Below are positions 12,290 through 49,264 of a stretch of 64,000 nucleotides of DNA, one piece after another. The translations under genes and the position numbers were made by a program. Source of the DNA: Sordaria brevicollis (Eukaryota > Ascomycota > Sordariomycetes > Sordariales > Sordariaceae); the NCBI GenBank assembly GCA_033439795.1, contig JAUTDP010000006.1, positions 1,674,001 through 1,738,000 of the forward strand. The letters are read 5' to 3'. Within the stretch, counting starts at the first letter, position 1. The number at the start of each line of letters is the position of its first letter. The notes under the pieces were generated by a model. The model was not told the DNA's origin and searched no databases. It worked only from the letters and a program-made list of their open reading frames with translations.

Positions 12290-13170
12290 GTATTTAAATG
12301 CGAAATTTCTATATTAGAAGGTAATTAACGAAAATATTATAATAGAAATCGAGAAACGCGCCGAGGTTATTAATTGCAATTAGGTAAATTATTATAGGGA
12401 TATTATATTCTTTAAATTTATTTCGGAGGTAATTTCTAAGAGTCGGAGATTCGATAAGATATACGGTATAAATATTATCGATAATTTTATCGATTAAAAT
12501 ACTTTTTATTAAATTTATAAAGAGGACCTAGTTATTATTTAGGAAGAATTTCGTATTTAGGGAATTATTACCGAAGTTTATGCCGATATTATATATACCT
12601 TTCCTAAAGTAATTAATAAAACTAGCGAAAACGTAGTCCGATTGGATTCGTAAGTTTTCTATTTTATTAATTAAATATATTAATTTTTATTCGATAATTA
12701 TTAATTAAATTGCGAAATTATTAAAATAGATACTTATTAATACGTAGAGAAGGTTAATATTCCCGAAGAATTTGAATAATAATTTTAGGCCTTAGAGAAA
12801 TAAAACCGGATTTTTATTTAAACGGTCGCTATATTAACGGAAATATTACCCCTATCGGGTAAACGCACCGTTATATTTATTCCCGATATTAAATACAATA
12901 TAAAAATAAAGTAGGACGTTAAAATTAGAAGCGATATTGCCCGACGGATATACGGAGGTATTAATTTTCTTAATAGTAATGATTCTAATAATAATAGTAA
13001 TTCGTTAATTAATTAAGGATTAGATCCTTAATTGCCGTTGGGTTTAAGAGGATTTACGTTTATAGGACTTATGAAGGTAGTCCCCCGGTAAAAACGGTTT
13101 ACTAAAATCGCCGATTTATATATATTTAGTAATAACCCTTTTAACGATAAGGTGTCGTTTAATACTAATG
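12290..13170 (+). pseudogene. gag of A, N-terminal part
   Basis: A plus-strand frame with scattered RIP-type stops runs up to the B insertion and continues after it at 40138. The joined frame gives a typical gypsy capsid region (FNTNA followed by an IF-x-IKYKLK stretch). The exact start is not resolvable because T lies just upstream. Confidence 0.55.
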
Positions 13171-13636
13171 TGGGGTGAAATTATTATCTACCTAGATATA
13201 TAAGTAATTATTTAAATAATAGATAATAAGGTAGGTATAGATCTATACCTCCCTCCCTCTAGAAGATTCGGAGCCTATATTTAAAAAAAAGATAAAAGGG
13301 GGAGGCTTCTCCCTCCTTCGATTAAGGGAAGTAAGAGGGAAAATTAAAGAAGATAATAACTTTATTTTTCACCTAAAGAACCTTTTCTACGAAGCTACTA
13401 AATAACCCCCTTAAGGACTTCTAAAAGAATTAACTAATAGATTTACTCCTACTTGAAAAAGATAATAAGAGTAAAGCTTTGCTTTACTTTTACTCTTCTT
13501 CCTATAATAGTAAGGTTGAGAATTATTAACCCTATTTACGTTTTTTAAGTAAAAACCCCCTAGATTAGTTTAATCTTTTGCTATAAATTTATAATATAGG
13601 CTTTATTTCCTTTATAGTATAATTTTTAATTTAAAT
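13171..13636 (+). repeat. 5' LTR of B
   Basis: 466 bp, starting TGGGGTGAAA. It aligns without gaps to 39667-40132. Its outer half is less mutated than the matching half of the 3' LTR. Confidence 0.92.
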
Positions 13637-18187: not shown

Positions 18188-18810
18188 TGAAATGGGGAAG
18201 AAAAACAACCCTAAATAACCACTACCACTACAATAATTGGGAAAGGAGCTATATCAAAAACTTCTAATAAGATTAAAAGAGTAGAGAGAGGAGCAGATCT
18301 GTAGGGGAGAAAGGAGCAATCTAACAATAGGAATATCTTTTTCGACTTAATTGTATCTTTTCTTTTACCTATTATAGAGGTAGGGTTAGGAAGTTTTAAA
18401 GATTTGATTAAGGAGCTAATTTTTACTAAATTGAAGAAGATTTTTATCTCAAAGATTAAATAAAGTCTAATTGTTATTCTAATAAAAATTGCCTGACCTT
18501 CTTTCTTTATTTTTAATTACCCTTCTCTCTTTTTATTTCCTTTAGAGCTTTCCTTCTTTCTATATAAAAGTCCGAAATTCATTCTACAGCCTTCTTTTTT
18601 AATCTATTTAATATACCACTATTATACTTCCTTCAAATTAGCTTATTATAATGCATCCTTATCCTATACCTCTTCTCTTAAATTATAACTAGGGAAAATC
18701 CTTAGAAGAATTCCTTTAGAATAAAAAACTACGAAAAATTTTCGAAAAAATATAGAAAAAATTTGCTATCTAGCCGTATACCTTTATACTTATTTATCCG
18801 CCCTATTTCA
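18188..18810 (-). repeat. 3' LTR of C (left copy)
   Basis: 623 bp, gap-free match to 31087-31709. The left (outer) part keeps bases such as TGAAATGGGG, which read TAAAATAGGG in the other copy. Confidence 0.93.
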
Positions 18811-18899
18811 AACTTCCCTTTAAATTTATTTACTAATCCTATAAAACTAAATTTATTAATAACTACTTCAATCCTTCCTAGCCGACCTCTTCTTTTTTT

Positions 18900-21400
18900 A
18901 CCTTTCTAATCTTTTAAACTCTCTTTCTCTTCTCTTTCTCTCTTTCTAAATTAGTTTACGCTTTATCTTCTACCTATTTTCTTCTTAACCGATCTTCTTC
19001 TTATTTTAGGCTACTAATATAATAATATATCCCACATCCTAAATACAATTTGTAAATATAATATATCGGGATAATATTAGAGTATATTTAATATTGAAGA
19101 TTATATTACTAAGTTTTCGAAGTTTATTAGCAAGTGGGAGCTAATTATCTACGTTGAGCTTATTAGGCAAAATAAAATTATTAATTATAACGATTTCTCT
19201 TCCCCTATAATTATTAATATTAATTACCAATATTTATTATTCCTCTATACGCTTCCTCTTCGCTTTAAAAATTAGCGGCAATAATTACTTTTTTTTAGTA
19301 GGAGACGTTAAAATACTATTGCAATTTCCTTTTAATTATATACTAATAATTATTAAAAAAATGCTATTAGTAAAACTATTATTGGGTAAAGCAATTTTAA
19401 TTTTGGGGAGGGATTGGACAATAGGTTTTTATTTAAAAAAACGGGGAAAATAAGGGAAATTAGCAAATTTTTATACTAATTAATACCTAATTATTTTAAT
19501 AGGGCGATATTCGTTTAAATAACCTCTCTAATATACTAAACTCGTAAAGAATTTAGGCTAGGGATTAAAGTCTTCTTTTCCGCTTTTCCTCTTTACGACC
19601 GTATAGATTAATTATTTCTAATTTTTCGAAAGTAGATTCTTTCTTATTTACTACGTTAAAAGGGCGTTATATATTACTTTTATCTATTACTGAACTATAG
19701 CATTTTTAAATTATTTTATATTAGGGATTTAATTATATTCCTATTAATATTTACTTTATTCCTAAAATTCAATTATCGTAAACCCTTGAAGTAATTTGTT
19801 AATAAGTTTTCTTCGACGTTTTATCTCGATAAAAAAAATTCGGGCTATTTTTAAAACTTAAAGGCTATAAATTTAAATTCTCTATTATATTAGGAATACT
19901 ATATTGAATTATTTTTAATTATTAGAAATATTAGGGATTCGATCTCCTATTGGTATTAAAAAAATATAATTCTCAATTACGAATACTTTATAAGCTTTTA
20001 TAATTTTCTATTCGTATTACTAATTATAGAAATTATTATAGAAAAACTAAAACGTTTCTCCTTAATTAAAGATTATAAGAACGAAGTAATTATTAACTAC
20101 AATAGGGAAATACCAATATCGGACTAATTTTAAACTATTTCGAATATTAATATCTTTAATATAAAATTCACTACGTCTAATAATAGTAATTAGGTTTATT
20201 AAAGTATAGATCTAATCGCTATACTTTCGCAATATTTAATACAAATTAATATAAATTATTTCTCCTTCCTACTAATTCTTAATATTCGCTAAATACTATA
20301 TATTAATTAATCCTAATATTATTATATCCCAAAATATAATCGGGGTTAATTACTTATTAAACTATCCTAAAACGGGAGGAATAATTATATAGCGGAATAT
20401 AATTCTAATTGTCTATTTATCGTTATCGGGCTCTCTAGTAATTAAATAGGTCGAATTCTTATCGAGGATAATATTTTATTACTAATTAACTCTAAGGTAT
20501 TTCTAATTTTAAAATTTATTATAATAGATTAAATTATTTCTAATACGAAGGGGACAAATTTTTCCAATAATTATATTACCGAATTAGGGCCAAATTTTAT
20601 TCTTTTAATTCTAGCGCCGAATAGTCTTAAAGACCACGGGAGGGCAATTATTCGGTATTCCTATAATAGAAATTAAAGGTAAATTATTATAACTAAAATT
20701 GGAGGAGTTTATATTAATTAATATTTTAATTAATAATAAAGTTCTAAGGGATAGAAAATTTAATATAAAAGGGTTTTTAATAGGCAATAATAGTATAAAT
20801 TTATAAAAGGGTTTATTAATATATAAAAGGAAGAAAAAGAAGGAAAGGAAGGGTTATAAATAAAGGGTTTTTATACCTATTTTGTAAATTATCCACAAGG
20901 TCGAAAAATCGTAAATTCTTCCCTTTCTCTTAATCTCCTCTCGTAAATTATTTATAACACTTTAAACTCATTCCTTCTAATTTCTATTCATCTTATTTAT
21001 ATTTAAAATTTCAAATAGTAAAGTAAATAAACTTTATCTAACTTCCCTTAATATAATCTCTTAGCCTTTTAATATAATCGAAAGTCTTAATCTATAGTTG
21101 AATTTTAAAATTAAAGTACCTTTCCTATTATTTTTAATAAGAAAGTACTTTAAAATAGCGTTTATAACCCTTTTTATAATTAATTAAGATTTTAAAGCCT
21201 TACGAAATTGCTTTAAATAAATAGATATTATTTTTCTTATTTAATTTAAAGGTTTTTCGTAATCGTAGAGTATACGGTGCAAATAATTTTAAAAAGATGG
21301 TTTCTATCGGCTTTTTCCTTCGAAGATCATTTACTAAAAAAGTATAAAAAAAGTATATTTCTATTTATAATTATTCTTTATTTTTCCTCCTAATAACCTT
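18900..21400 (-). pseudogene. Ulp1/C48-like ORF of C
   Basis: On the minus strand one frame carries NNYFVLIIF, with Tyr at 20088-20086 where a catalytic His is expected. Seventeen codons on comes FFYNNF (Asn at 20037-20035 for Asp). Seventy-three codons after the His position is Tyr at 19869-19867 for Cys, in a stretch ending ARIFFIEIKRRR. The codon six before it is TAA (from CAA, Gln). The corresponding spacings in B are 17, 72 and 6, and B has TRIFFIKI at the same place. Limits of the ORF are uncertain. A competing plus-strand frame with few stops overlaps this region, but it lacks the shared motifs. Confidence 0.55.
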
Positions 21401-21483
21401 CTCTTTTTAAATATAATAAAGTATTAATAATAATAATAAAAATAAAACTATTAAGCAAAAATTCTTCGTAATAAATTAATATA

Positions 21484-22980: not shown

Positions 22981-23299
22981 TAACACCTGTACTATAAAAA
23001 AATAAATCTATATCTTACAGTTTTTTAAAACTTCTTGTATTCTTATCTATATAAGTATTAATTTCCGAAAAAAATTACGAAAAACTTTATTAAATAAAGG
23101 GGGTTAATAAGGTTTTTAAAAATATAATTAGAAGGAATAAGGAAAATAAATATAAAATATAAAATTCTATATATTATATATACTTCCCTTCGAAATTAAT
23201 AAAAGTTCCTACAAATTAATTTCGTATAAAAATAAAATAATAACGAATAATAGTAAAAAATAACGAAGTAAATGCTAAGGAATATATTTATCTTAATTT

Positions 23300-26200
23300 C
23301 GGAAGTTAGTTTGAACTTAAATTTGGGCGCGATATTAATTTCGTTTTTAATTCGGGTTTTAGTTTAGACTTTAGTTCGACTTCGTCTTTATTAAAATAAT
23401 ATTAAGGGCCTTCGGGCTTAATAAATTCCAATTCGATAATAAATTCCTAATTTTATTCGCATTCTCTTTTAGTATTTTAGCGGGTTTAAATCTACTTTAC
23501 TTCTAATCTTCGCGCTTATTCCCGTATAAAGAGTAAATGCTCGTTAATTTAGACTTCTTTAGGGACCTATAAACCGTTAATAGTATTAAGATTATTGAAT
23601 TCTTTATATTCTTTATTAGGATTAAGGAGTATACTATTTCGGCGAATAAATTTCTTAATATTTCTAGAAGAAATTAGCCTTTTAAAACGAAATCCGTCTA
23701 ATTACGTATAGTAATAAATATTTTTATTAATAATATTAACGATTTTATAAGGACTTTTCCACTTATAATTTAATTTCTTAATAATATTTATATCGATTCC
23801 CCGAATACTATCGTAAATAAAGATAAAATTTCCAATATTAATAATAGCGTTTTTCGGTCTCATTTTATAGAAATTAACGGAATCTCTTCGCGCGGTAGCT
23901 TTTCTCCTAGCATCGGTAACCTTCTCGGCCGCCTATTAAAAGCGGTATTTAATATTATAATATATTTAAGCGACGGCGGCGATTAATTTATTTATTATAT
24001 ATTTCTTTAAATACTTTTCCTATTCGATTAGTTTTTAAGATAAATGGTCGAATTTAATAGGAGTAATAGGATTATAATTATAGGCTAATTAAAAGGGAGT
24101 GAATCCGTAATTATTACGAATAGTAATACGATTAATAAAAAGGATATAAGGGAGTAAATCCTTTTATCCTTTATTAATTCCTTTTATTAATTTGGTTAGT
24201 ATTATAATAATTACCGAATGCCTTTATTCGTTAATTCTATTAGTTCGGTAATTATAAGGCGCTATTCGTATTAACGGGATTTAGAGGTTATTAAATACTT
24301 CGGTAAATTCTCCTTGAAATTCGGAATTATTATCGATAAAAATATTAAAAGGATATCCCTAACGTAAAAATACTTTCCGGAGGAAAATAGTAATATATTT
24401 CGACGTTAGTATTAGAAGAACTTTTATTTCTACGTAATTCGTTAAATTATCTCTAGCTTTAATTAACGTTTATCGTTTTCCTTTTCCGCCCGGTAAATAT
24501 TAAACGTCTAAAATCTACTAGCTAAAAAGTTAAAGAATTAAAAATAATTATCTATACCTATTTTTATAATGTTTAAGAACGTATATTTAATAAATAGTAT
24601 AGCTGCGGATTATATTTTCGACCTAAGTATATATTCTATACTAATAATAGTATTTAGTGATCCGTTTATAAATTCTTTCCCTTCTTCGATAGCCGGCTTC
24701 GTCGTAATAACGTTATATAATTAACTCCTATTACGTCTTATCGTCAATTAAAAGACGAGGGTAAGTACACTTATAAACTATTTGTAATTAAAGCCTTCGA
24801 TAATAAACGAAATATTTAAGGGCGTTTTTCTTAAAAGTTTATTGTATAATAAATATTTTATTATATTGTACGGGAACGCGGAGCGAAAGTAGATAACGAG
24901 TTATATTTTCCGAATAATTAGAATATTCGTTGAATAAAATCCGCTCCCCTTCTATATATTTCTCGGTAAAAAGATAATAAATTTAGACGTCGATAAAGTC
25001 GTTAATATCTTCCTTAAGGCGCTTCTCTTTTAAATTACTTTTTTTAAAGGGTTTTTAGGAAAGGCCGTTAATTATAGTATTTTTAATTCCGGGGATATAC
25101 TTTATATTAAAATCGAAATATTTTATTTAAATAATCTACCGTATAAGAAGGGCATTAAAAATATCGTTTACCGCGCTATTAAATTAATAAATAAAGATTT
25201 GAGTATCTATTTTAATAATAAAATATATTCCGAAAAGTTAATGTCTTAATCGTTTGAAAATATAGAGTAAATTACGAAATTTTCGTTTAATAGTATTATA
25301 ACGAGCTTCGGCCGGTAACTAAATACCGCTCTCAAACTTATAAGGATATCGTTTCTTATCGAAGTTAAATTATTTAATAATTGCTTTCTATCCTTTAATA
25401 TAAATATTGGTAACGAAATAAATAATTATTTCGCTATTATTATAAACGAAGGTTATAAAGATTAGAGTAATAGTAATTTTATATTAAAGATATTCTATAG
25501 TAAATTACTAATTTTCTATTTATATTAATTCAATTCCCTTCTTTATAATAGCGTATAACGGGATAGCAATAATTCTAAAATCTTTAATCTAAATCCGGTA
25601 ATAATTAACGATACCTAGAAAAGCTCGAAGTTTTTTAAACTCTTTTCCTCGGGGTTTGGCTTTTCCAATAATATAATGAGTCTATTCGCGAATTTTTCTA
25701 ACTTTAGTTTCATTTGGAGATTTGCCTTTAGGACTATAAATATAATTAATTAAAATTATTTTTTGTTTATATTATTAGGATTTGGTTACGGCAATTATTC
25801 CGCTAGCAAATTTAACGTTTAGTAGTACTCTATTAATATTAATAAAATATTCGTAAATAAAGCGTCGAATTCCTTTATTATTAATTAATTTATTATTATA
25901 CCGGCTTTTTAGACTTTTAATATAAATATCGTTAAAATAAGGCTAGTATACCTTAGGGATTAAATTGTAAAGGATCCTAATTATTACCCTTATAAATTAA
26001 GCGATTGAATTGGTTCCTCTCTAGGGTAGTGTTATTATATAGAATAGACTAAAAGGTATTAAAAATATCGTTAAATCCCAATTTTCTTCATTAAATTAAA
26101 CTTTATCGTATCCTAAGAATAAATTTAATAAAGAAAAAATCTCGTACCTAGTAAAATCTTCGCTAAAAGGTTCGTACCCTGGGGGTATATTAGTATTACG

Positions 26201-28500
26201 GATAATTATTTTATTAATTTTCTAAGCGTTATTAATTAACCGGAATTTTCTATCCTTTTTCTAAACGAAAAATTAATTATTCCGATAAGAAGTATAATTC
26301 TCTTCCAGAATTTTATATTAAATACGTTCTTTAAGCAAATTATAAACTTTTTTATATAAAGTTTATAAAATAGGAATTACTTTCGTTTACTAAATTAAAT
26401 AGGTAACCGTTTTAATCTTCTATTTTTCTATTACGTTTTTATAAATAAAACTACATTTAAAAAATTCTTAAGCAAGGGCCTTTTCGCGATTGAAAAGTAT
26501 ATAAATAAAAAGTTCGATTTCAACTTCGTTGAATAATTCGTTCTTCTCTAAGATTTATTAAAGTTTTTTAAACGTCAATTAGGAACCTTTAATTAGTTCT
26601 ATAAATCGTAGAATAATATATTTATCCTATTTAAATAGAAAATTGTTTAATTATTTTTAAATTTTATGCCGGATTTCTTCGAGTTTCCGTTTCTTCTAAT
26701 TAAGGTTATTACCGGGTTTAGAACTATCCGAAGGTATATTATCGACTAATTTCATCTTTTAAGCGATTCTTTTATATAAGGTATTAATTTAAATAAATGG
26801 AAAAGAGTTTCGTAATAATATAGAAGAAGATAAATTAGCGAGGGACGGAATATCCTTTATTTTTTTAAATTTCGGGATTTTTTTCCTTTAATCTTTAGCG
26901 TTTTTAATTATTAATCTTCGTAATTCCCGAAAAAAGCTTCTACGGATTTTTTTCCTTATTCGGTCTTATACTATTCTATTTTCCAATTATTATTTTATTA
27001 ATAACTAATTCTCCGGAAGATTATTTATATTCTTCCTCTAATATTTTAAATTAATTTCTCCAATTAATCGAAAGTAATCGGATAATACTTCTTCGTTATA
27101 CCTTTTACTATATAATAAAGTAATAATAGTATCCGCAATTTCCTTTCCCAAAGAAAGGTAATTCTTATTATCCTTATTAATTTTAATACCTTTTATAAAT
27201 CTCTTATTATTTTCTTTAAAATTTATTTTAATAAATTTATAAAGCGATTTATTCGTTAAAATAAATTCTTAGGTATTATTTACAATAATAGGGCAAATAA
27301 TTACAGTAAGGGAATTAAACCCGCTGCCCGAAGGCGTCTATTTACTCCTTAATAGCGAAAAGAATATTAATTCTTATTCCTCCTATAATAAAATAAATAC
27401 GAGCGGTTCCGACGTTAATATAATCTATTATAACGCTAATATTTTTAATAAATAGAAAATTAAATAAAATTTCGTAACGAGGGAGTTAATTCCGAATAAT
27501 TATAAAGTATACCTTCTAACCTTTATTGAATAAAAAAATATCCTCTACTATTTTACCCTCAAATTATACCCTTCTACTATTAAAATTAATATTAATAATC
27601 GTATAATTTATATTATTAAAATTAAATTTATTGATTAAATTAGTAAATATAGTATTAATTTCCGTACTACTATTTAAAAGAGCTATAACCTTTTTACCAC
27701 TTTTAAATTTAATATTGACCATTAACGTAAAAAGGTTTTATATACGCGTAACTTCCTTATTAAGTAATAACTTTTCGCTATAGAATATAGTTTAAAAATC
27801 CTCTTTATAAATTCGAATTAATTCGTCTTTAAATACCGTCTTAAAATCTACGATTTAATAATAAAATTAATACGTTTACGTAGCGAAGATATCGCTAAAC
27901 CTCTTTTTTTAATCCTTATATAATAATTCCTTAAGTATTGTAATAATGGTATTAATTTATAAATTGTACGGATGGAATTAATTAACTTCTAAGTTATTAT
28001 CCTTAATAGTATTACCGTTATATATTAATTAAAAGGCTTCTTTAAAAGCTTTTTAGTAATATTTAAAGTTAATTAATTTTTTAAATAATTAACCGGACTC
28101 GGGAGTAACCGTAACTATATCTTCGAAAGTAATTTGCAATTTAATACCTATAGTCTTACTAATAATTGGGCAATTCTCTTTAATTTAAATAATTTTATAA
28201 TTTATATAATCCTTAAAGTTATTAAAATCCTTAAATTTAAAAACGGATTTATTAATTAGAAGTTTCTAAATTTTAATTGGAAATTCGTCTATAGGTTTTA
28301 GCGATTTAGCAGTAGCGGTAGGAATTAATTCTAATTAAAGAGCTAGTTTAAATATAATTTTAATTACTATTATTCGTACGTCTTTTTAATCCGTTATATC
28401 TTCTATACGAGGGTTGAAATCTAACCTTTTTATAGGTAGTAATTATAACTTTTCTTTTCGATTTATATTAGAAGGGGGTTTACGAAGAATTATTAATCTT
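23300..28500 (-). pseudogene. pol of C: protease, reverse transcriptase, RNase H, integrase
   Basis: On the minus strand, reverse transcriptase runs from about 26300 to 25500 (ENYTSYRNN, then FNDIYIKS, then KKLRAFLGIVNYYR). RNase H follows to about 25080. Integrase appears around 24450-24000, with VLLILTSKYITIFLRKVFL and FIDNNSEFQGEF blocks carrying catalytic-position Asp residues, and YNYRTNRINERQH. The same domain order and many of the same residues occur in B, so the two are sister families. Heavy RIP makes it non-functional. Confidence 0.85.
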
Positions 28501-28899
28501 CCCTGCATTTAAATAAGCGTAATAATAATTTCCCTCTTTATAATTTACTTTAAAATTTAAAATATTAAGAAAGATTTTTAAGTAAAAGGCAGAAAAGACG
28601 TTAAATATAAACCAATTAAGCTATAATTAATTTAGAGAAATAATTTATTAATTAAAATTATATTATTCTAAGGATTAATTCGGCGATAATTTTAAACCTC
28701 TTATTATTTTTATTAATATTCTAACTCTAAGAGATTAAAGTTAGGAGTAAACCTATTAGAATAAATTTCGGTTTCTTATTCCCGGAATTTATTATACTTA
28801 AAGTACTCATTATAGTAAATTATACGGAATTTAAATATATTTCTAAAGCGGTTTATACAAAAAGTAGTAAAAATTATATCGCTCGGAATATACTATATT

Positions 28900-30080
28900 A
28901 ACCTAATATTACTTCCTAAGTAGAATTACTACTTACGGCTTTATTCTTTATTAATTTTAATTTAATAAATCTATCCTTTATCTATATAATAATCCTTATC
29001 TTTATATTAATATTAAATATAACCAAATTATTTATACTAATAATAAGTTATATTTTCCGTTAATTGAATTTATTTAATCGACTATATTATTATAGTATTA
29101 ACCTAAGGAATATAATTACTCCTAAAGAAATTTCGGAAACGATTCTCAAAATTCTCAATTTACTAATTCGCTACCTTAATATAAATAATCTATATATTTT
29201 AAAGGCTCTTAATTAGAGCGTTTATAATAACGGGTTCCTTAATAATTTCCTATTTAACGGTCGTAATCTTCTTTTTATTAGAATCCTTCTTACTATTAAA
29301 AATCTTAGTTTTAGTAGTAATAGTCTTCTCTATTACTTTATTATCTTCATTGCTATCGTTATCGTTAAAGGAATTAGAAAAGTTATTAGAATTAGAATTG
29401 GAATCGCTATCTTCCCTTCGATAATAAGTAATAATCTAATTAGAAAACTTCGTAGAAAAGTCAATCTACGTTATTTTAGAAAATTTATTTTCATCTTTAT
29501 TGAAATAAATAATAAAATTAATACGGTAACGGTGAAGTAATTTCTTATAGAAGCGTTTAATTACCAACCTCTCGATAATTTCCTAATTAATTTGCTTTTA
29601 CCGAATTAATAACTAATAATATTTGAGAATAGTATTATTAACGGCTTTCTTATTATTTTCGATACGCTTATAGTAAAAGTCCTAGAGCTTATTTACATTA
29701 GAATTTATTTACTCCGGGTCGTAAATACGATAAATAATACGGAATTCATTATAAAACCTTACTTACGTAACGGGCTCGTTCTCTTTCTTAATAGAGCGGA
29801 TAATACCCTTAATAATATTTCGGGATTAGGGCTTATATTATTGGTACTATACGTTGATCTTTTCTTCGTTATTACGCTATTTAATAAAATTCGTTCTATC
29901 TTCGAAATTTAGGAAGAATTTAGTAATATTCTTATTTTTAAACTTCTTTTTAGGATTAAAATCCTTCGAGGAATATATAGGGAACGTTATAATCGTTTAA
30001 TTTAAAGCGGGGTTAAAGTTCTATTGCTAATTCTAACTATTACTATCCTTATTTTCGGGATGAATTTAATAGTTAAAAGC
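28900..30080 (-). pseudogene. gag of C
   Basis: Minus-strand translation gives a capsid-like protein (KNITKFFLNFEDRTNF, later YYKRIENNKKAVNN) followed by an Asp/Asn/Ser-rich and Lys-rich tail. RIP stops are scattered. It lies just inside the 5' LTR, as expected. Confidence 0.6.
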
Positions 30081-31086
30081 TTAATTAGAATTTATTATAT
30101 TTAGGAGGGAAGAGGGTAAAGAATATATAGGAGGTATAAGGGGAGATGAATAAAGAAGCGAAGAAATAAATATAAAAAAGGGATTAGTAAATATAATAAG
30201 TAGATTAATTACTAATTAAGAATTATTATAAGTAGAAATTATTAATTTTAGTATTAATATCGACGAATATTTTATTAATTTATTATTAATAAAGGATATA
30301 AAATGGTAAAAAATATTCGGAGGGAACCTCTTATTAAATAGACGCTAATATAAGGTACCGCTATATCTTTATGCGAAATTTAGCCCTTTACCGGTAGAGG
30401 ATAGATTATACTTCAATTAATATCGGATAATACGATATATATTAGACTTAATTGAGTAAATTACTATATATTAGCGTAAGGGGGTTTAAGGCCGTTAAAT
30501 AAATATATTATATCCTAAAAGTTCCGACGACGCGTATTAAAATAAGGTTCTTAGAGCTATTAAATAAATATTTTATATATTCGAAGCCCCGGCGCCGGTT
30601 ATTATTCGCTTATATATACCCTTCTACCGGACTTACGCAAAGTATTAATTTAATACTAAAATCGGGGCGAGGTTTCTAATTTAATAATATTTACTTTAAT
30701 TATCGGCCTCGGAGCCGGGAATTTATTATTAAATCCTCGGCTAATCGGTTATCGTTTACTTAGTATTGAAAGTTATAAATCTTCTAAATTTATAATCTAT
30801 TCCTAATTTAATTTCTAGGGACGTTTTTATAGCGTATAATAATTAATATTAAGAAGGCTATAATTGTATTCACGCTCATCCTATACATTATTTCATTTCT
30901 ATAACGAATTCCGTAGTATATTTAGGATAGTATATTTCTAGTTCTATTTCGATATTTATTTTCTATTATTTTTTTTTTATAACCGACGGATTACTAAAAT
31001 TCCTAGTCTTATCGTTTTAAAGTATTGAGTCCGCTTTAGCTAATTTGGTTAGAAGTTTGAAATTCAATTTCGTCCTTATTACTATT

Positions 31087-31709
31087 TAAAATAGGGAAGA
31101 AAAATAACCCTAAATAACTACTACCACTACAACAATTGGGAAAGGAGCTATATTAAAAACTTCTAATAAGATTAAAAGAATAGAGAGAGGAACAAATTTA
31201 TAAGGGAGAAAAGAATAATCTAATAATAAGAATATCTTTTTCGATTTAACTATATCTTTTCTTTTACCCATTATAGAAATAGGGTTAGGAAATCTTAAAA
31301 ACTTAATTAAAGAGCTAATTTTCACTAAATTGAAGAAGATTTTTATTTCAAAGATTAAATGAAGTCTAATTATTATTCTAGCAAAAGTTGCCTGACCTTC
31401 TTTCTTTGTTTCTAATTACCCTTCTCTCCTTTTATTTCCTTTAGAGCTTTCCTTCTTTCTATATGAAAGTCCGAAATTCATTCTACAGCCTTCTTTCTTA
31501 ATTTACTCAATGTACCACTATTATACTTCCTTCAAATCAGTTTATTATAATGCATCCTTGTCCTATACCTCTTCTCTCAGATTATGACTAGGGAAAATCC
31601 CTGGAAGAATTCCTCCAGAATGAAAAACTACGAAAAATTTTCGAAAAAATACGGAAAAAATCTGCTGTCTAGCCGTGTACCCTTGTACTTGTTTATCCGC
31701 CCCATCTCA
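31087..31709 (-). repeat. 5' LTR of C (right copy)
   Basis: 623 bp. Its right (outer) 330 bases are clearly less mutated than the matching bases of the left copy. The short open frame inside it (31110-31325) is not a gene. Confidence 0.93.
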
Positions 31710-31713
31710 ATAC

Positions 31714-34700
31714 AAAAAGGGATTTTCGAAAAGAATTATACTACCTACCGAAATAATTAGTTTTTAATTATTAAAAAGAATAGCGGCCTATATCTTATTA
31801 ATAACGCTTAACGGATTAATAAAGTAATTTTAAAAAATATTAACTTATTTCTAAGTTATAAAAAATTTAACGAAGCGTTTAAAGGGTATAAAATATTATT
31901 TTTACTTAACCTTTTCTCTAATTACGATTAAATTCCCTTTAATAAAATTAACCGCGACCTTATTACCTTTTTAATACTTTTAGGCCTTTTTAGGATAATT
32001 ATTTTATTTTAAGGAAGTATTAATTCGATTATTCAATTTATAAGGGCGATAATTAGAATATTTTACGATTTAATTCCTAATATTTACTAACCGTACTTTA
32101 ATAATATTTATATTAAGGGGCTTTAAATAATTTATAATAAGGAATAAATCGGTTCGAAGGGGATTAAGAAATATATTTTAGAATATTTTATAAATATCGA
32201 TAAAGTTTTAGTTAATATTAAATTTACCGGAAGTATTATTATAATAATTAAATTATAATAATATTAGAAGGAGGTAATTCTTATTAAGTATTTTTATATA
32301 TTTAATAGAAGGGTTTTAATTAAAGAGAAAGTCCGAAAAATTAACGAATAGATTTATTATAAAAAAATTCTTAAGAAAAAGGGAAGTAGTATTTAAGAGG
32401 TCCGCTCCTTCTTAAGAATTATAGGTTATTACCGGGTATAAATCTATAGGTTTAATATTATTATAATCCTTTTTTATACTTTAATAAAGAAGGGAATTAC
32501 GTTTAAATAAATTAAAAACGAATAATTCGCAATAGAATACCTTTAATACTTAATTATTACAATTCTAATTTTTATAATTTTTATTTATAATAATAAACGT
32601 TATAGAATTATTATTCTAATAATCGATATTTCTCTTAAAGGTTGGGGAGGTATCTTAGAATAAATCGGCCCTAATAGTAAAAAATATCCGTACAAATTTG
32701 AAAACGGAATTTAGTTAGAGGTTAAAAAGCGCTATAATACTATTAAAAGGGAATTTTAAAAGCTTTTTTATACCTTAAAACGCTTATAAAAATATTTCTT
32801 TAAAATATATTTCGTTATTAAAACCGATATTATAATTCTTATATATTAATTTAATAATATTATTAATAATATCTTAAAGGTTTTATTAATATATTAAATT
32901 ATTTGGATTAAATTTTTCGACTTTAAAATTAAATATATTCTTAATTTAAAGAATTTTATAGCGGATAGACTATCCTATAAACCCTCTAAATTTTTTAATT
33001 TATACGAAAAGGAGTATAAAAAGGATATTAATAATTTCGTAAATACGTAAATTTATATTACCCTTACGGAATTACTTAAATTAATTTTGCGTAGTAATTG
33101 GTTACGGTAATTAGAAAAGATTGTAAGGTTCCTTCTAATTATAAAGATTCTTATTTATTTAAAAAGTATAGTTTTAAGGCGCTAATTCTATAATAACGTA
33201 TTAAAATATATAATTTAAAATAACGTTCTTTAATTACAATTTACTAATTTTATTTAATTCCCTAAGCGGATTATTAATATTTAAGAAGAGCAGTAGTTAA
33301 TTATAACCTAATACTATAATAAAGTAAAATATCGAAGACGTAAGGGAATATATTATTATATTATTAAATATTATTATTAGAAGGGTATATATAATAATAT
33401 CGAAGAATTAATCCGCTCTTACCCTTAATATTAATAATTTAATCCTAAACGCTTCGAAGATAATTATTAATAATCTTATCCTAATTTTTACCCTTTTAAT
33501 AAATAGATTTTGGATATTTAATATCTTTTAAAGGCTAATAAGAAAAAGATTCCCCTCTTAGAAGCTAAGGATAATGCGACTAGTTATATTGAAATTACCG
33601 TTTTATTTAATATTAAATTTATTTAAGTAAAGCATTTCTTTAAATTTATTTTTTTAAAATAGGGATATCCTTTAGCGGTTTTAATTAATAATAGTTTTGA
33701 ATTTTAATTAACCGTTATTAAATATTTAATTTAATTGGGGATTTATAGGGAATATATTATACCCTTTAATTTTAGAATTAATAAGAATAATAAATAAAGG
33801 TATATAACGATCGCCGCTTTATTTATAAAGATAATAGATAATAAAGGGCGTAATTAGAAAAAATTCTTACCCTACGTTTTATTTATTAACCGAATAATAA
33901 TCCGGGGTAATTATAATTATATTCCCTTTTAATTGGCTTATAATTATAATCCTATTATTCTTATTAAATTCGATTTACCCTTATAGCGGGTTATTAATTA
34001 GAAAAATAATAATAAATTAATAACGAGGGAGGAGTTAATTTACGCCATTACTCGAATACGCGAAAAATTAGAATATTAATTTAATTAGACCGTTAAAAAA
34101 GTCGTTATAATAAAGGAAATAATTACCGCCTATCGTAATAAGAGGGATAAACGAAAAATACGCTTTATTAATATTTAAATCGAAGTCGGAAATTTTATTT
34201 TAAAGTATAATAACGTTAGGAAGGTAAATATAAATTCTATACGGAAATTAATTTATTATTAGGAGGGTCCTTATTATATATATTAAATCTCCTCTTCGGG
34301 TAATATTTATTATTTAAATATTTTTAATAAAATCCCTTTAAAAAAGCCGGTAAGTATTAGGAATATTAAAAAATTCGTAATTAAAGATAGAATAATATTG
34401 GATATTAAAAATCCGATAAAAGGTTTATAAGAGCCGATCAATCCCGAAGAAGGATTTATTCGGGGTTTAATTAATAACGGAAAAATCGTGGAAGAAATTC
34501 TTAAAAGATTTTTAAAAACGGAAGAACTTTAATTATTATTTATTAAAAGAATTCGAACGAAGACTTTTAATAAAAGAATGCACTAAAATTTTAAGAAATT
34601 TTTAATTAAAGTAGCTATTTTAATAAAAAGGCCTCCGGGGGAATAGGCTTTAATTGAGGATTAATTTAAGGTATAATTAAGTATTATATAAGGGGAGGAG
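31714..34700 (+). pseudogene. pol of B, second part (reverse transcriptase, RNase H, integrase)
   Basis: Immediately after C the frame continues with a KGIFEKNYTTYRNN stretch and then the catalytic reverse transcriptase blocks. These include an IYIKG block near 32110 at the place expected for the active-site region. RNase H follows at about 32600-32960 (RYNTIKREF near 32730). Integrase covers about 33300-34100, with ANKKKIPLLEAKDNATSYIE-type core sequence and a GYPLAVLINNSFEF block, and a basic C-terminal region follows. The same blocks occur in C. The copy is inactive because of numerous stops. Confidence 0.85.
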
Positions 34701-35419
34701 ATCTAGCCCTAATTTAGAAACGATTTTAATTAATTTTAAATTGTAAATAGAGGATTATAACGCTAAAAGGTATATAATAGGGTTAATAACCGCCAATATT
34801 TATAGGACGCTATAAATATTATCTTTTTTCGAATTATTAAAAGTACCCTTAACCGAATAGCGTCCGAACCGATCCGTACCCGACCGATTCCTCAATTATT
34901 AATTATTTTCGATTAGGAATTCTAATTCCTTTTTCTTTTTTTTCTTACGTCTTTTATTTTTCGTATTAAGTCCTTTATCTTTATTTTTAATTATTTATTT
35001 TTATTTACTCATTTTTACTTTTATTTCTTTTAATCGATTAAGGGAAGTCCCTATTAAATTCCGTAATATAAATAGTTTTTAAAATCCGATTTTAATTTTT
35101 AATTTCTTAGGAAATTATTATTTAAGGTTGGAATAAATTAAAATACCTTTAACGCTAAGAGTTTAATACCCTTTTAACCGTTTTATATTATTTTCTAATA
35201 TTTTATTTTAGGGAGATTTTTTTTGGGTAAAAATAGTCGTTCGGAGCTTTAATTATTTTTAAAAGGAAAATTAAATATTAAAGTAAAAGGGAAATATTAA
35301 AGGGAAATTATTTTTTTTTATTACTTACCTATTTTATACTTATTTTATTTATTAAAAATTTTTCGCCGAAAAAGTTTTATACTCTATATAGGAGGTATTA
35401 ATTTATATTTATAACGCTA

Positions 35420-36130
35420 ATTCATTTTTATTACTCTTTTTAAGAAGAACAATAATACCCTCTCCCTCTTTTTTAATAATAATAATAATACTATCTTTTT
35501 TACTTTTATTACCCTTAGAATTATTATTTTTAATAACCCCTTTACTAAGAACCTATTAATTAATTCCTCCCTTAATTTCGATATCCTTAACGTTAATTTC
35601 GAATTTTATTTTCTTACGAATAGGCTTTTCAACCTCGTTAATTTCTCCGCTACCTTTATTATAAAATTTACTTTCTTCATTTAAATTATTATTATCCTTC
35701 GAAAACCGATTTATATTAATAATATTAAAAGTATCTTCGTTATTATATATAATATTAACTTTAATATAATTATTACGAATATTTAAACTTTTTCCTTTAA
35801 TACCTAATTATTCGTACTCAAATTAAATATATTCGGCCTAATTTTTAAAATTATTAAATACACGCCGATTTACTCTTTATTAATAATTCTTAAGTATATT
35901 ATCGATTATTAGAATAGGGCTATTAATATTGCAATTACTAATTAAAATTTTAATAAAAAGCCGTAATATAACGTTTTTATAAAATTTAAATTGAAATTCC
36001 TTTTTAAAATAATTTAAATAGGTATATTAATTTATTTATTTAATATTCTAAGCGTAATTCCTATATATACCTCCTTTAATATCTCCTAATATAGAAATAT
36101 AGCCTACGAAAGGAAATTAAATATTAAGGG
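35420..36130 (-). pseudogene. Antisense ORF of B (C-terminal part), unknown family
   Basis: On the minus strand, converging on pol, a frame reads through blocks such as SPILIIDNILKNYQQ and, further on, RVFNNFKNQAEYIQFEYEQL (Q marks RIP stops). It ends in an Asn/Asp/Lys-rich low-complexity tail. The same pattern (ARSILIDNILLYRQ, then a QQLEYIRQEF block, then an acidic tail) is found in the antisense ORF of C. Conservation of frame, order and position in two separate elements argues that this is a real gene. No function is recognised. The N-terminus probably lies near 36.7 kb. Confidence 0.55.
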
Positions 36131-36767
36131 ACTCCTATTCGTTATCGCGGGTAAAGATCGAAATATACGATTTCTAAATCTATTCGATATAATTAATATA
36201 AAGGAACCGGTTTTTAAAAAAAAGAAATTAATTAGTAAAGGAAGATAGAAAAAGAAAAAGAGTAAATCCGTATAGAGAATTATATATTTAAATAAATAAA
36301 CCGAAGATACACTCTTTCTTAATATATATATAGGCGCTATAATAATTTAAGGGCTAATTTCTTTTCTTTTTAATAAAAACGCGCCGGTATTCTTTAGTAT
36401 CGAAATCGTATTTATTAAAATATTTAAAAATAATATACTAATATTAATTTATTAAATAAAATTCTTTTATTAAATTTTCAATTTATTTAAAAAATTTTAA
36501 TAAAACCTATTCGAAGTAGAGCGAATTAATAAAGGGAAGATAAATAATAGTAAAGATTTTCACCCTAGAAAAGAAGATTTCGGTATTTATATTTATAAAT
36601 ATTCTTTAGAATTAATTATTAGCGAATTTATAGCCTTAATAAATATAAACCTTATTAAAAAATTGCTTCTTTCCGTTAAAATAAGCGTTTATATAATAAG
36701 GATTATTCCGAATAATTAAAAGGAAATTGAAGATAAAATTATAAGGGGCCGGAGCCGAAAAACGTTT

Positions 36768-39555
36768 ACCTACAATAGTAATATATTCGCCGAAATTTAT
36801 ATTAAAAAAAGGTTTCTTCTATTAATTAATAAATACTTTAAAGCGTTAAATCTCTTCTTAAATAGGATTTTTCGTAATATCCTTAAATTTAATTATAGTA
36901 TTTTAATAAAGGAGGCGAATTTATATAATATTATTTAAAGGAAAAGAAGTTTTTTTTGGGACGAAAAGAAGCGGATAAAATAGAAAAGAGTAATATAAAT
37001 TTATTCGTCGGCTAAAAAGGGAAATTTTAATTCCTTCCCTAATTATTTAAATAAATTACTTAAATAACGAAAATAGAATAGTTAATAAAAATAGAACCCG
37101 GACGTAGGAAGGTATTCGGACGAATAAATATTCGGACCTAAAGGTATTTTTTAAATAATATAGTAGTAAAAAAGTATTTATAATACCAATAATAATTTTA
37201 AAATAATATAAATTTATACGAAAAATAGAAAATTCTTACAATAATAAAAAAATATTAACGCATCGTAGGGTAAGAAATTTTTTTTTCCTTTTACTACGAC
37301 CTTTAATACTTTTTTCGTTAAAAAATAAATTTATATTAGCCTTTTATAACCTTTTTTATTAAATATCTTTATATTTCTAATTTCGATAACGTTATAATCC
37401 TTAAGAAAAACCTTTCTTTTCCCTCCTAAAATCTTTACCCTATTAAACATTTATTTTTTACCTTCGCGTAAATCTATTCCTCTATTAAAAATAATTTCGA
37501 ACGAGGAAATTATCTTTACGGAGGAGGAATAAACCCTTTTCGCTAAAAATATAATATACTACTAAATTAAAAAATTATTTGAAGGAATAGGATTTATTAT
37601 CGAATTTTAAAGACGGTAAATTTACAATTAAAAAGATATTAAAATATATATAGAGTAAGTCTACCCCTTTAAAATAATTAAAGAAGAATAGTAAGGTTTT
37701 ACCCCTTATTTAAATTAGCGCTGTCTAATTATTATAAACGGACGTTTAAACGAAGAAAAATTATTACTATACCTATTTATTATAAAGCTTAAAATTAATA
37801 AAATATTATTAAAATTAATTTACAGGGACGTTCTCCTATTTATTAATTAGCCCGCTATTTTTTAATAATTCGACCGCTTTATTTAAGAGTAGACTTATTT
37901 TAGCTTTATAAACCTTTAATATTTTATAAATATTTAAATTTGGGCGGAAAATACTAATATTTACGCAACCCTTATTTATATATTACGTAATTTCGGGGAT
38001 TGTATTTATATCCTTTCCTAAACTTATAAACTCGATAATAATAATATAGAATTTCCCGGACTAAGAGGAAATCTATCCAATTTCTTTAAAATTACTAAAT
38101 AATAATATATTCTAATATAAATTAACGAATATTTTATTCTAATAATTTATAATAATAAAAATAAATAATAATTCTTTTATAATTCGGTACCTATTTTCGA
38201 TAATTATAAACGTACGAAGAAAGTTTATTTTTCCTTAATTTAATAATATATTATTACTTATAGGTTTAATAATTAATTTATTAATTTAAAGAGGCGGTTT
38301 ACTTAGGTTAAAATACCTTTCCTATATTAAATTTACACTTAGTCTTACGGTTTTTGGTATTTAGAAGCTACGCGAATTTTTTTTATTAAAATTTAACGCC
38401 GAAGATATAATATTAGGAGCCTAGAGTTAATTAATTAGGAGGAAGGAAATTATTAGAGACTATAAATTTAGACTAATTTAATATATTTCTTCGAATCCGC
38501 TATAATCTATATATAAATGCGCGCGGTTTACGATATTTTAAATATTTATTACATTTATATATTAACCTACGTCGGAAATTATTTAAAAATCGAAGTAAAT
38601 TTACTCCAACGAATTAAAATATTCTATAACGAGGATAATAAATTAAATCGGCTTTTTCGGTTAAAAATATTTAAATTTTTCGGCGAATATAATATTATAT
38701 TATTATAAAGAGAAAAGGATATTCCGTATTTCTTTTAAAGAAATTAGAACGCTTTTTATAATATCCTTTAATAGGATAACGAAAGTCGTAATTTTTTTAA
38801 AGGGAAGTTTTCGAAACCTTTCCTCGTAGGAAGGAAGTAATTAATCTTTTCCTTTAATTCCTTATTAATATTAAATTCAAATAATTTTTCTTCTTCCTCC
38901 TCCTTTTTAAAAGAAAAAAATTGTAAATAAGGAAAAATTATTATACTTATATTTAATATTAATTTTAAAGATAATAAATTCTTTAAAACCGTTAACGAAG
39001 GGGAATAAATCTCCTCTACGCCTATTATAAAAATTACCCGCGTTTAAAAAAAGAAATTCCTAGCCTAAATTATAATAGCCAATTTTAATATTACTTTTAA
39101 AAGGGAGATTATAATTAATTAACCCTTATAACCGAAAAAGAAAAGGGTAATAAAAAAGTAATAAAACGATTTTATTATTTCGATATAAACTAATAAAGAG
39201 TATTTTTTAATTAATTATTTTATCCTCCCTAAACCCTTTTCGGTTTTTAAAGATTTTCCTTAGGGCCTAAAATTTTATAATAGGAGTAAATTAATAATTG
39301 AAATTAAATTTATTAAAATATTAAGTAATAGAATAATTTAATTAATCCCTTTTAAAAATAAAGTAAATATAAATATTATTTAAGCGGTAATCGATGTAGG
39401 ATATATAGTTAATAAAGCGGGATTAAATATAGAGGAAAAAATTAAACGTAAAGTTTTAAAAAAACGTTTAATTAAAGAGAGAAAGGAAGAGAAGGTTAAT
39501 AAACGCCGGAAATAATTTATACGTAGAGGATTAATTACTTTTTTTTTTATTTTAT
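36768..39555 (+). pseudogene. Ulp1/C48-like cysteine protease ORF of B
   Basis: A single plus-strand frame can be followed for about 930 codons with only RIP-type stops; 38517-38708 is fully open. At 38130 the codon at the catalytic His position reads TAC/TAT (Tyr) in NEYFILIIY. Seventeen codons on, 38181 (AAT) lies in FFYNSV where the family has Asp. At 38328 TAA stands six codons before 38346 (TAC) in SYGFWYLE, where the family has Gln and Cys. In yeast Ulp1 the residues are His514, Asp531, Gln574 and Cys580, the same 17 and 6 spacings. Each change here is the transition RIP would make. The C-terminus is strongly basic. C48 enzymes cleave ubiquitin-like tags or viral polyproteins; the role here is unknown. 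Confidence 0.62.
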
Positions 39556-39666
39556 TTCGGATATCTTTTCTTTAATTTAATTTTTGTATTTTAGGAAAGA
39601 GGATTTTTATTATACGAATATTTTTATTTAGGACGGTATAAAAAATATTCGAAGGGAAGTATAATA

Positions 39667-40132
39667 TAGGGTAAAATTATTATTTATTTAGATATATAAA
39701 TAATTATTTAAATAATAAATAGTAAGGTAAGTATAGATTTATACCTCCTTCCCTTTAGAAGATTCGGAGCTTATATTTGAAAAAAGGATAAAAGGGGGAG
39801 GTTTCTCCCTCTTTCGATTAAGGGAAGTAAGAGGGAGAATTAAAGAGGATAATAACTTTATTTTTTACTTAAAGAACCTTTTTTATAAAGCTATTAAGTA
39901 ACCCCCTTAAGGATTTCTAAGAAAATTAACTAATAGATTTACTCTTATTTAAAGAAGATAATAAGAGTAAAGCTTTGCTTTATTCTTACTCTTCTTCCTA
40001 TGGTGGTGAGGCTGAGAGTTATTAACCCTATTTACGTTTCCTAAGTAAAGACCCCCCAGATTGGTTTAGTCCTTCGCCATAAATTTGTAGTGTAGGCTCT
40101 ATTTCCTTTGTAGTGTGGTTTTTGGTCCAAAT
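39667..40132 (+). repeat. 3' LTR of B
   Basis: 466 bp. Its last 140 bases (for example TGGTGGTGAGGCTGAGAG) keep TpG/CpA that the 5' LTR has lost. Confidence 0.92.
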
Positions 40133-45411: not shown

Positions 45412-45539
45412 ATTTTTTACTTTTAGGAATGGAATTCGCTTTGCTCTTAACCTATTAATAGAGATAGGATTGCGTTTTTTTTCCTTTCTTTCTTTCTTTT
45501 CGGCTCTGGGGCTGAGCCTTTATTCCGAAGGGGGGGTAA

Positions 45540-45825
45540 TATTATAGTACGGTTGGAGGGATTTATAGTAGACCGGTTTATAGGGAGGATTAGCGTTAGA
45601 GATAGGGTATTAGCGATATAGTATATCGGATAGAATGAGGTTTATATTCTTATCGATAAGACTTCCGGATTGGGAAGGTGGAAACGATTAGTAGAATTTA
45701 GCTTATATGCTAGATTCGTGATACTTTCGTTTATTTACTTTCCCTTTTCTTCTTTATATTTAATATTACTTTGATTTGTGGCTTCTAGTTTGGGCCTTTG
45801 CACCTTGTAGGATTACGCTTTTATA
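45540..45825 (+). repeat. 3' LTR of A
   Basis: 286 bp, starting TATTATAG (a RIP form of TGTTATGG) and followed by GATAG. Its last part (about 45770-45815) keeps TpG/CpA that the 5' LTR has lost. Confidence 0.93.
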
Positions 45826-49209: not shown

Positions 49210-49264
49210 TATTGCGTGGCGGTCAGACTAGAGTGGGGACTGATATGGTGTTTGCAAGGCACAG
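49210..49264 (-). repeat. Right terminal inverted repeat of Z
   Basis: Inverted partner of 6062-6116, with 52 of 55 bases matching. It still has nearly full GC content, while DNA a few dozen bases inward is heavily mutated. Confidence 0.85.

What the first reader, a model, noticed from the sequence alone, without database searches (positions are those of the whole stretch)
36768..39555. Giant gypsy element B carries an Ulp1/C48-like protease gene after pol
A sense ORF of roughly 930 codons lies between pol and the 3' LTR. Codons at 38130, 38181, 38328 and 38346 have the spacing of the His-Asp-Gln-Cys site of C48 proteases (17 codons His to Asp, 6 Gln to Cys, as in yeast Ulp1). They read Tyr, Asn, stop and Tyr, exactly the products of C-to-T or G-to-A changes at His, Asp, Gln and Cys codons. 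I know of C48-type domains in some plant Mutator-like elements and of adenain-like proteases in Maverick elements, but not of one as a separate gene in a fungal Ty3 element. A desumoylating or polyprotein-cleaving role could help an element in heterochromatin.
Basis: partly seen in the sequence, partly recalled or inferred. Interest (0 to 1): 0.87.

Follow-up and report, generated by a model that had tools for sequence, protein, structure and literature searches.

The report
Protease-like gene in fungal retrotransposons
Two related families of long, mutation-riddled retrotransposons in a fungal genome (Sordaria brevicollis) carry the same extra gene after their replication genes, and that gene likely once encoded a cysteine protease of the kind that removes SUMO tags from proteins.

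Summary
Copies and relatives carry the case. Found from its pol, each of 22 family B copies has the stretch downstream, 18 within 3 kb; it belongs to the element. Among 18 near-full copies one keeps His (CAT) and one Asp (GAT). Scanning those 18 against 24,736 Pfam families gave one hit: Peptidase_C48 in one copy (E 0.01, below the cut-off). Un-RIPped relatives in the same genome read His-17-Asp (L059) and Gln-6-Cys (L060) at the aligned codons. The nested element at 18190-31710 (minus strand) carries a homologous ORF with the same spacing; of 11 copies read, 3 keep Asp and one Cys. I call it a C48-like cysteine peptidase gene shared by two Ty3/gypsy families. Against this: no molecule shows all four residues, structure prediction failed, hhalign gives 0.5% probability, two profile scans of mine saw nothing, and no intact full-length relative was found. 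SUMO removal is inferred. The 930-codon frame is continuous only because this copy has 4 extra bases that 17 of 18 copies lack.

The parts
13166..13618 (+). 5' LTR of element B
   Evidence: pairs with 39662-40114, 87.6% over 453 nt
31722..34637 (+). pol of element B (RIP-damaged)
   Evidence: 43.9% over 977 aligned columns with the pol of the nested element; RT_RNaseH PF17917 E 6.5e-6 at 32610-32852
35112..36224 (+). further stretch between pol and the C48-like ORF, collinear with the nested element; coding strand and function unknown
   Evidence: 28.4% over 454 columns against 22170-23510 minus, 87 bits; an antisense reading of an overlapping collinear stretch scores higher, 97.8 bits
36959..39566 (+). 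C48-like ORF of element B (RIP-damaged); start not determined, homology to family C begins at 37302
   Evidence: 18 near-full copies; frame break at 36955-36958 in 17 of 18; homologous to 18832-20907 minus, 26.6% over 800 columns, E 1.7e-27; downstream of pol in 22 of 22 B copies
37749..38480 (+). predicted C48-like catalytic region
   Evidence: 732 nt in 18 of 18 copies; PF02902 E 0.01 in 1 of 18 copies
38130..38132 (+). predicted catalytic His codon (TAT here)
   Evidence: 18 copies: TAT 13, TAC 4, CAT 1; un-RIPped relative L059 CAT
38181..38183 (+). predicted catalytic Asp codon (AAT here)
   Evidence: 18 copies: AAT 17, GAT 1; L059 GAT
38328..38330 (+). predicted oxyanion-hole Gln codon (TAA here)
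   Evidence: 18 copies: TAA 18; un-RIPped relative L060 CAG, with a 4-nt indel close upstream
38346..38348 (+). predicted nucleophile Cys codon (TAC here)
   Evidence: 18 copies: TAC 14, TAT 4; L060 TGC
39662..40114 (+). 3' LTR of element B
18190..18811 (-). 3' LTR of nested element C (element reads on the minus strand)
   Evidence: pairs with 31089-31710, 89.6% over 622 nt
18832..20907 (-). homologous C48-like ORF of nested element C (RIP-damaged)
   Evidence: at least 40 matching places in the genome
20086..20088 (-). His-column codon of family C
   Evidence: 11 copies: TAC 7, TAT 4
20035..20037 (-). Asp-column codon of family C
   Evidence: 11 copies: AAT 8, GAT 2, GAC 1
19885..19887 (-). 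Gln-column codon of family C
   Evidence: 11 copies: TAA 11
19867..19869 (-). Cys-column codon of family C
   Evidence: 11 copies: TAT 10, TGT 1
23405..26311 (-). pol of nested element C
   Evidence: RT_RNaseH E 0.00099 at 25175-25384 and Integrase_H2C2 E 0.0011 at 24599-24739; homology to B pol
31089..31710 (-). 5' LTR of nested element C

Best explanation
Two related Ty3/gypsy families in this window share a gene between pol and the 3' LTR that likely encoded a C48-like (Ulp1-type, clan CE) cysteine peptidase, predicted to strip SUMO or another ubiquitin-like tag from host or element proteins. Shown: both families have homologous ORFs at the same place, and B copies found from their pol have it downstream, 22 of 22. 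Single copies or un-RIPped relatives hold His, Asp, Gln and Cys at the aligned positions, with the spacing of Ulp1. Inferred: the enzyme's fold and activity, because every copy read is destroyed by RIP. Inferred: SUMO or a relative as substrate rather than the element's own polyprotein. Inferred: the benefit, which would be to weaken SUMO-dependent silencing or to protect the integration complex in the nucleus.
For: (1) Family B: the His column keeps CAT in 1 of 18 copies and the Asp column GAT in 1 of 18; the other cells are compatible with RIP of His, Asp, Gln and Cys codons. (2) Family C, 11 copies read of at least 40: Asp kept in 3, Cys in 1, with the same 17- and 6-codon spacing. (3) Un-RIPped relatives: L059 reads LPIWISNHFTLATFDPGEKIWWYYDSD (His-17-Asp, CAT/GAT); L060 reads RQGLAWSCGFWCLEAARLFF (Gln-6-Cys, CAG/TGC). 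(4) Pfam at E up to 10: PF02902 is the only family matched by any of 18 catalytic pieces, E 0.01 (L008, residues 111-178, across His and Asp). (5) A profile built from cellular Ulp1, SENP, Ulp2 and NEP sequences puts its His and Asp columns on those of L059 and L008; 1 of 20,000 shuffles reaches each score. (6) hhalign pairs the same columns; 1 of 396 shuffles reaches the score. (7) Differences from the un-RIPped relatives that are not in the RIP direction fall 40, 27 and 71 at codon positions 1, 2 and 3 (138 in all, p 1.5e-5 against equal shares; single fragments p 0.001, 0.04 and 0.08), as expected of a gene kept by selection in this frame. (8) B and C share the ORF: 26.6% over 800 columns, E 1.7e-27. 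(9) B pol copies: 18 of 22 have the ORF within 3 kb downstream on the same strand, 4 have it 11-53 kb downstream.
Against: No single molecule shows all four residues. Pfam's curated cut-off is not reached (16.1 of 20.7 bits, 1 of 18 copies); the longer window copy gives only DUF5831, E 0.063. The three un-RIPped fragments give no Pfam hit and no PDB protease of this type (L059 and L060). L060, which carries Gln and Cys, scores -2.5 bits on my C48 profile. Profiles of the copies find nothing in PDB. A purine/pyrimidine scan and a joint-likelihood scan with a Ulp1-heavy profile found no signal at the domain. hhalign gives E 0.11 and a probability of 0.5%. AlphaFold models have mean pLDDT 24.7 and 40.4; Foldseek on the second finds no protease of this type among 24 matches. 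The residue after His is Phe, not Trp, and the Asn and Asp of QxNxxDC are absent. Gln rests on L060, which has a 4-nt indel just upstream and 4 transversions in the 15 bases between Gln and Cys. The antisense reading of the shared ORF stretch scores 92 bits against 114 for the sense reading. For C, 6 of 40 listed pol copies have no listed ORF within 80 kb; both lists were capped. No intact full-length relative was found (one search is void).
Confidence: 0.66

Rival explanations
1. The gene is a clan CE peptidase, but its job is to cut the element's own Gag-Pol polyprotein, as adenain does for adenoviruses, rather than to act on SUMO.
For: Clan CE peptidases serve as polyprotein proteases in adenoviruses (recalled). 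The residues around the Cys (S-C-G-F-W) are not the QxNxxDCG of the cellular Ulp1 sequences. No aspartic protease was detected at E 0.1 in the B frames scanned.
Against: Damage by RIP hides most domains in the same scan, so a missing aspartic protease means little. The only profile hit of the catalytic piece is PF02902, not an adenain-type family. The shared stretch is over 750 codons long, more than a processing enzyme needs.
Confidence: 0.2
2. The ORF is a real accessory gene, but not a peptidase: for instance an env-like or nucleic-acid-binding ORF3 whose codons happen to fit.
For: The motif occurs 155 times in this AT-rich DNA. The curated Pfam cut-off is missed, L060 scores below zero on my C48 profile, hhalign gives 0.5% probability, two scans are negative and no model is usable.
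Against: His, Asp and Cys are seen at the predicted columns in independent copies and relatives. The only Pfam family hit of 18 pieces is C48. L059 reads a complete His-to-YYDS block.
Confidence: 0.17
3. The stretch is a host Ulp1 gene fragment captured once, or a separate insertion, with no function for the element.
For: Host C48 genes exist in the genome, and gene capture by transposons is known (PMC13317346, passages).
Against: It lies downstream of pol in 22 of 22 B copies and is shared with family C. Non-RIP differences are biased to third codon positions. The C48 profile with host proteins in it scores only weakly on it.
Confidence: 0.05

Closest known systems
Ginger1 DNA transposons with a C-terminal Ulp1 domain (PMC2836005, passages read)
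   Same: Gypsy-type integrase and a Ulp1/C48 domain in one mobile element
   Different: Ginger1 is a cut-and-paste DNA transposon of animals with the domain at the C-terminus of the transposase; here the ORF lies after pol in LTR elements of a fungus
CryptonF-2_PS and CryptonS elements of oomycetes (PMC3212892, passages read)
   Same: C48 peptidase carried beside the mobility enzyme, in some CryptonS elements as an additional protein
   Different: tyrosine-recombinase elements, no reverse transcriptase
Utopia-1_TSP and NeSL non-LTR retrotransposons of nematodes (PMC4640811, passages read)
   Same: Ulp1-like cysteine protease in a retrotransposon
   Different: N-terminal domain of a non-LTR element protein, not an ORF between pol and 3' LTR
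Plant Mutator-like elements with KIU/Ulp1 genes (PMC13317346, passages read)
   Same: gene with a Ulp1 domain in a transposon, linked there to escape from silencing
   Different: DNA transposons of plants
Polinton/Maverick elements (PMC11071308, passages read)
   Same: cysteine protease of the Ulp1 family together with a retrovirus-like integrase
   Different: self-synthesizing DNA elements with a DNA polymerase and capsid genes
LTR retrotransposons with enzymatic ORF3 in bdelloid rotifers (PMC5408684, passages read)
   Same: extra ORF encoding an enzyme beside gag and pol
   Different: GDSL esterase or DEDDy exonuclease; animals

Membership tests
Peptidase C48 (PF02902, Ulp1/SENP) | catalytic His and Asp, 17 residues apart in yeast Ulp1 | tested here: met
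   L059 His-17-Asp; B copies 1 of 18 with CAT and 1 of 18 with GAT, in different copies; C copies 3 of 11 with Asp, 0 of 11 with His
Peptidase C48 (PF02902, Ulp1/SENP) | Gln six residues before the nucleophile Cys, Cys followed by Gly | tested here: met
   L060 Gln-6-Cys-Gly; Cys in 1 of 11 C copies; Gln kept in 0 of 18 B and 0 of 11 C copies, and a 4-nt indel lies just upstream of it in L060, so Gln is the weaker half
Peptidase C48 (PF02902, Ulp1/SENP) | all four residues in one molecule | not testable with these tools
   the 18 B and 11 C copies read are RIP-damaged, and the un-RIPped relatives cover only one half each
Peptidase C48 (PF02902, Ulp1/SENP) | score above Pfam's curated cut-off | tested here: not met
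   16.1 bits against 20.7 in 1 of 18 copies, no match in 17; 0 of 3 un-RIPped fragments
Peptidase C48 (PF02902, Ulp1/SENP) | Trp after the catalytic His and QxNxxDCG around the Cys, as in the cellular members aligned | tested here: not met
   Phe after His in B, C and L059; Q-G-L-A-W-S-C-G in L060
Peptidase C48 (PF02902, Ulp1/SENP) | clan CE papain-like fold | tested here: inconclusive
   models of mean pLDDT 24.7 and 40.4; Foldseek uninformative
Peptidase C48 (PF02902, Ulp1/SENP) | hydrolysis of SUMO or a related tag | not testable with these tools
   needs an experiment
Ty3/gypsy LTR retrotransposon | LTR pair enclosing pol with RT-RNase H and integrase | tested here: met
   B: LTRs, RT_RNaseH, pol homologous to that of C over 977 columns; C: LTRs, RT_RNaseH and Integrase_H2C2, both below their cut-offs but E 0.001
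Adenain-type polyprotein protease (C5, Polinton PRO) | profile match to that family | tested here: not met
   no such Pfam family listed for any of 18 copies; damage limits the test

The most novel reading that the evidence does not exclude
A lineage of giant Ty3/gypsy elements in Sordariaceae has carried its own SUMO-protease-like gene since before the B and C families split, and kept it by selection as a weapon against SUMO-dependent silencing, which would make it the first known deSUMOylase gene of an LTR retrotransposon.
Probability: 0.33. Interest if true: 0.78.

Novelty: new variant of a known kind. Interest (0 to 1): 0.62.

Why it matters
C48 domains have been found in DNA transposons, Cryptons, Polintons and non-LTR elements. 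A conserved C48-like gene in two fungal Ty3/gypsy families would add LTR retrotransposons to that list, in a genome where RIP has damaged these elements heavily. It would suggest that control of SUMO is a recurring need of mobile elements. It would also make one old question testable: whether such captured proteases fight silencing, help integration or cut polyproteins.

Tried and rejected
Tried without result. Pfam on the window copy alone: only DUF5831, E 0.063. NCBIfam on 18 copies: none. PDB profile searches with the 14- and 18-copy alignments: none. Protein database search with the 14-copy alignment: 7998 candidates scored, none at E 0.01. My own purine/pyrimidine scan and joint-likelihood scan with a Ulp1-heavy C48 profile: nothing above background at the domain. 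AlphaFold on 18 copies and on L059 with four relatives: unusable. Foldseek: uninformative.

Errors of mine. In some searches I aligned six minus-strand copies without turning them; their codon tallies are wrong and one search replaces them. In one search the query was out of frame with the L060 ORF, so that search is void, and it spent the last of three protein searches. Searches stopped with errors; one search reruns the latter.

Rejected. 'Separate insertion': the ORF lies downstream of pol in 22 of 22 B copies (18 within 3 kb, 4 at 11-53 kb, where the ORF of two is itself broken up). The 18 copies were found with the ORF as query, so their having it is by construction; one search starts from pol and is the independent check. 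'Host Ulp1 copy': the host genes in L031, L032 and L033 are different. 'The motif proves it': 155 matches.

Rows dropped before counts. B codon tallies use the 18 near-full copies of the 38 matching stretches. Alignment A1 uses 14 of 18 copies (4 left out for indels). Family C tallies use 11 copies of at least 40 (40 of 48 candidates scored). Of 47 matches I used the 23 strong rows (21 near-full copies and one split in two); the rest are short or weaker. 396 of 400 hhalign shuffles were answered. hmmsearch listed 11,747, 8,266 and 8,695 of 20,000 shuffles.
Full report
What was checked. The window lies in a 53.08-Mb genome held as G000. A protein listed as Sordaria brevicollis matches the genome's Ulp1 region at 100% and sits on a contig of 2,606,703 bases, the length of G000:C3, so I take the host to be that fungus. 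6-49 kb and 54-57 kb are AT-rich with strong RIP indices. Two LTR pairs matter here: element B (13166-13618 / 39662-40114) and, inside it, element C (18190-18811 / 31089-31710). B's pol reads on the plus strand and C's on the minus strand.

The observation. The four codons read as reported. The pattern by itself is common in such DNA: 155 places with an Asp-Gln gap of 40-60 codons and 6 at the exact gap in the six frames of 6001-57600, candidate sites included. The frame has 73 stops in 929 codons. It is continuous from 36768 only because the window copy has 4 extra bases at 36955-36958, in a T/G run; 17 of 18 copies lack them.

The copies. A DNA search with the stretch gave 38 matches, 18 of them near full length, 80-87% identical to one another. 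Flank from 35268 and ORF align in 18 of 18 rows up to 39767, and in 17 of 18 in the next 500 nt, which hold most of the LTR; beyond that 2 rows remain. Since these copies were found by the ORF, I also searched with B's pol (33000-34600). It has 21 near-full copies and one split copy. 18 of these 22 have the ORF within 3 kb downstream on the same strand, and 4 have it 11-53 kb downstream, presumably pushed apart by insertions. None lacks it. For C, 29 of 40 listed pol copies have the ORF within 5 kb, 5 at 5-24 kb, and 6 have none listed within 80 kb; both lists were capped. At the four columns the 18 B copies read TAT 13, TAC 4, CAT 1; AAT 17, GAT 1; TAA 18; TAC 14, TAT 4. CAT is in L008 and GAT in L002. 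The last two columns are compatible with Gln and Cys but do not prove them.

Pfam. Of 18 catalytic pieces read with X at stops, scanned against 24,736 families, one (L008) matches one family: Peptidase_C48, E 0.01, 16.1 bits, below the cut-off of 20.7, over residues that span the His and Asp columns. A longer reading of 14 copies gave the same single family, E 0.017. A still longer reading of the window copy alone gave only DUF5831, E 0.063, elsewhere in the ORF.

Un-RIPped relatives. A protein search of the genome with L008 found relatives without stops. L057 aligns to 37585-38049 and L060 to 38253-38745. Of their 195 and 200 differences, 152 and 157 are C-to-T or G-to-A in the damaged copy. 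L059 is more distant (314 aligned bases in 12 blocks, score 109 against a maximum of 48 in 30 shuffles) and covers the His and Asp codons. L059 reads NHFTLATFDPGEKIWWYYDSD (codons CAT and GAT, 17 apart), and L060 reads RQGLAWSCGFWCLEAARLFF (CAG and TGC, 6 apart). The alignment puts these codons on 38130, 38181, 38328 and 38346. The Cys side is firm: 52 of 78 bases identical and 19 in the RIP direction from Cys onward. The Gln side is weaker, with a 4-nt indel just upstream and 4 transversions in the 15 bases between. Differences not in the RIP direction number 40, 27 and 71 at codon positions 1, 2 and 3 (p 1.5e-5 against equal shares; single fragments 0.001, 0.04, 0.08), which indicates that this frame was under selection.

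A second family. The nested element C holds a homologous ORF on the minus strand at 18832-20907, 26.6% over 800 columns, E 1.7e-27, 114 bits. Pairs that are not collinear reach 58 bits in that search. Antisense readings of collinear stretches reach 92 bits over this ORF and 98 over the stretch before it, so composition and RIP lift all scores. Family C has at least 40 places. In 11 copies read, the columns are TAC 7, TAT 4; AAT 8, GAT 2, GAC 1; TAA 11; TAT 10, TGT 1, with His-to-Cys distances of 73 codons in C and 72 in B. L058 is another copy of C. L063 is a further relative, with HFTLGILD...HYDSN, 19 apart.

Statistics for the family. A profile made from 23 fungal Ulp1 domains, five fragments of solved chains and two further host proteins scores 9.3 bits on L059 and 7.4 on L008, with His on His and Asp on Asp; 1.7 on the window copy; and -2.5 on L060. 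1 of 20,000 shuffles reaches the score of L059 and of L008; for the window copy 74 of 20,000 do. hhalign of 33 element rows against that alignment scores 17.38, reached by 1 of 396 shuffles, but with E 0.11 and a probability of 0.5%; the reversed alignment scores 13.84. Against: the scans showed no signal at the domain, PDB searches found no such protease, and the un-RIPped fragments have no Pfam hit.

Reading. I conclude that B and C carry a C48-like cysteine peptidase gene between pol and the 3' LTR. I do not file it as a member of PF02902, because the curated cut-off was tested and not met, and because cellular hallmarks (Trp after His, QxNxxDCG) are absent. It works like, and is probably a distant relative of, that family. 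SUMO or a similar tag is the likely substrate by analogy; polyprotein cleavage is the main rival. The benefit to the element is inference. Plant KIU genes, where a Ulp1 domain sits in an anti-silencing gene (PMC13317346, passages), are the nearest precedent for the silencing idea.

Literature. C48 or Ulp1 domains are described in Ginger1 (PMC2836005), CryptonF and CryptonS (PMC3212892), Utopia and NeSL (PMC4640811), plant Mutator-like elements (PMC13317346) and Polintons (PMC11071308); I read passages of each. The main texts of a survey of fungal LTR elements (PMC3248453) and of a review of giant transposons (PMC6431247) hold no 'Ulp1' (counts, where I also read passages). Passages of PMC10779208 concern Ulp1 genes on Colletotrichum minichromosomes, not in a transposon. 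Judged by titles and starts of abstracts, searches of the open library listed no fungal Ty3/gypsy element with a C48 gene (in 31, 34 and 82 only the best 25 of 59, 30 of 81 and 15 of 31 were listed); subscription journals and Repbase are not covered.

Noticed in passing
window 7339-7631 and 45533-45825: A third, outer pair of direct repeats (293 nt, 88.7%), probably the LTRs of an element A into which the B and C nest inserted.
   Followed up: no
window 6062-6116 and 49210-49264: Inverted copies of 55 nt (94.5%) near the two edges of the AT-rich block; meaning unknown.
   Followed up: no
window 8585-8673 and 12166-12254: Inverted repeat of 89 nt, 96% complementary, 3.5 kb apart, in the outer element.
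   Followed up: no
window 35112-36224 (+) and 22170-23510 (-): A further collinear stretch between pol and the C48-like ORF in both families, possibly another ORF; an antisense reading scores higher, so its coding strand is open.
   Followed up: partly
L057 1462-1797, L059 1474-1857, L060 1078-1665 (all minus): Un-RIPped relatives of 0.3-0.5 kb in DNA of 44-56% GC; they may have escaped RIP because they are short, and could serve to read other parts of these elements.
   Followed up: partly
L063 1441-1665: A partly degenerate relative in a locus of 49% GC with HFTLGILD...HYDSN, spacing 19 instead of 17.
   Followed up: no
C pol copies on C4, C5, C22, C2, C12 and C24: Six of 40 listed family C pol copies have no listed ORF within 80 kb downstream; the lists were capped, so these may be truncated copies or simply unlisted.
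   Followed up: no
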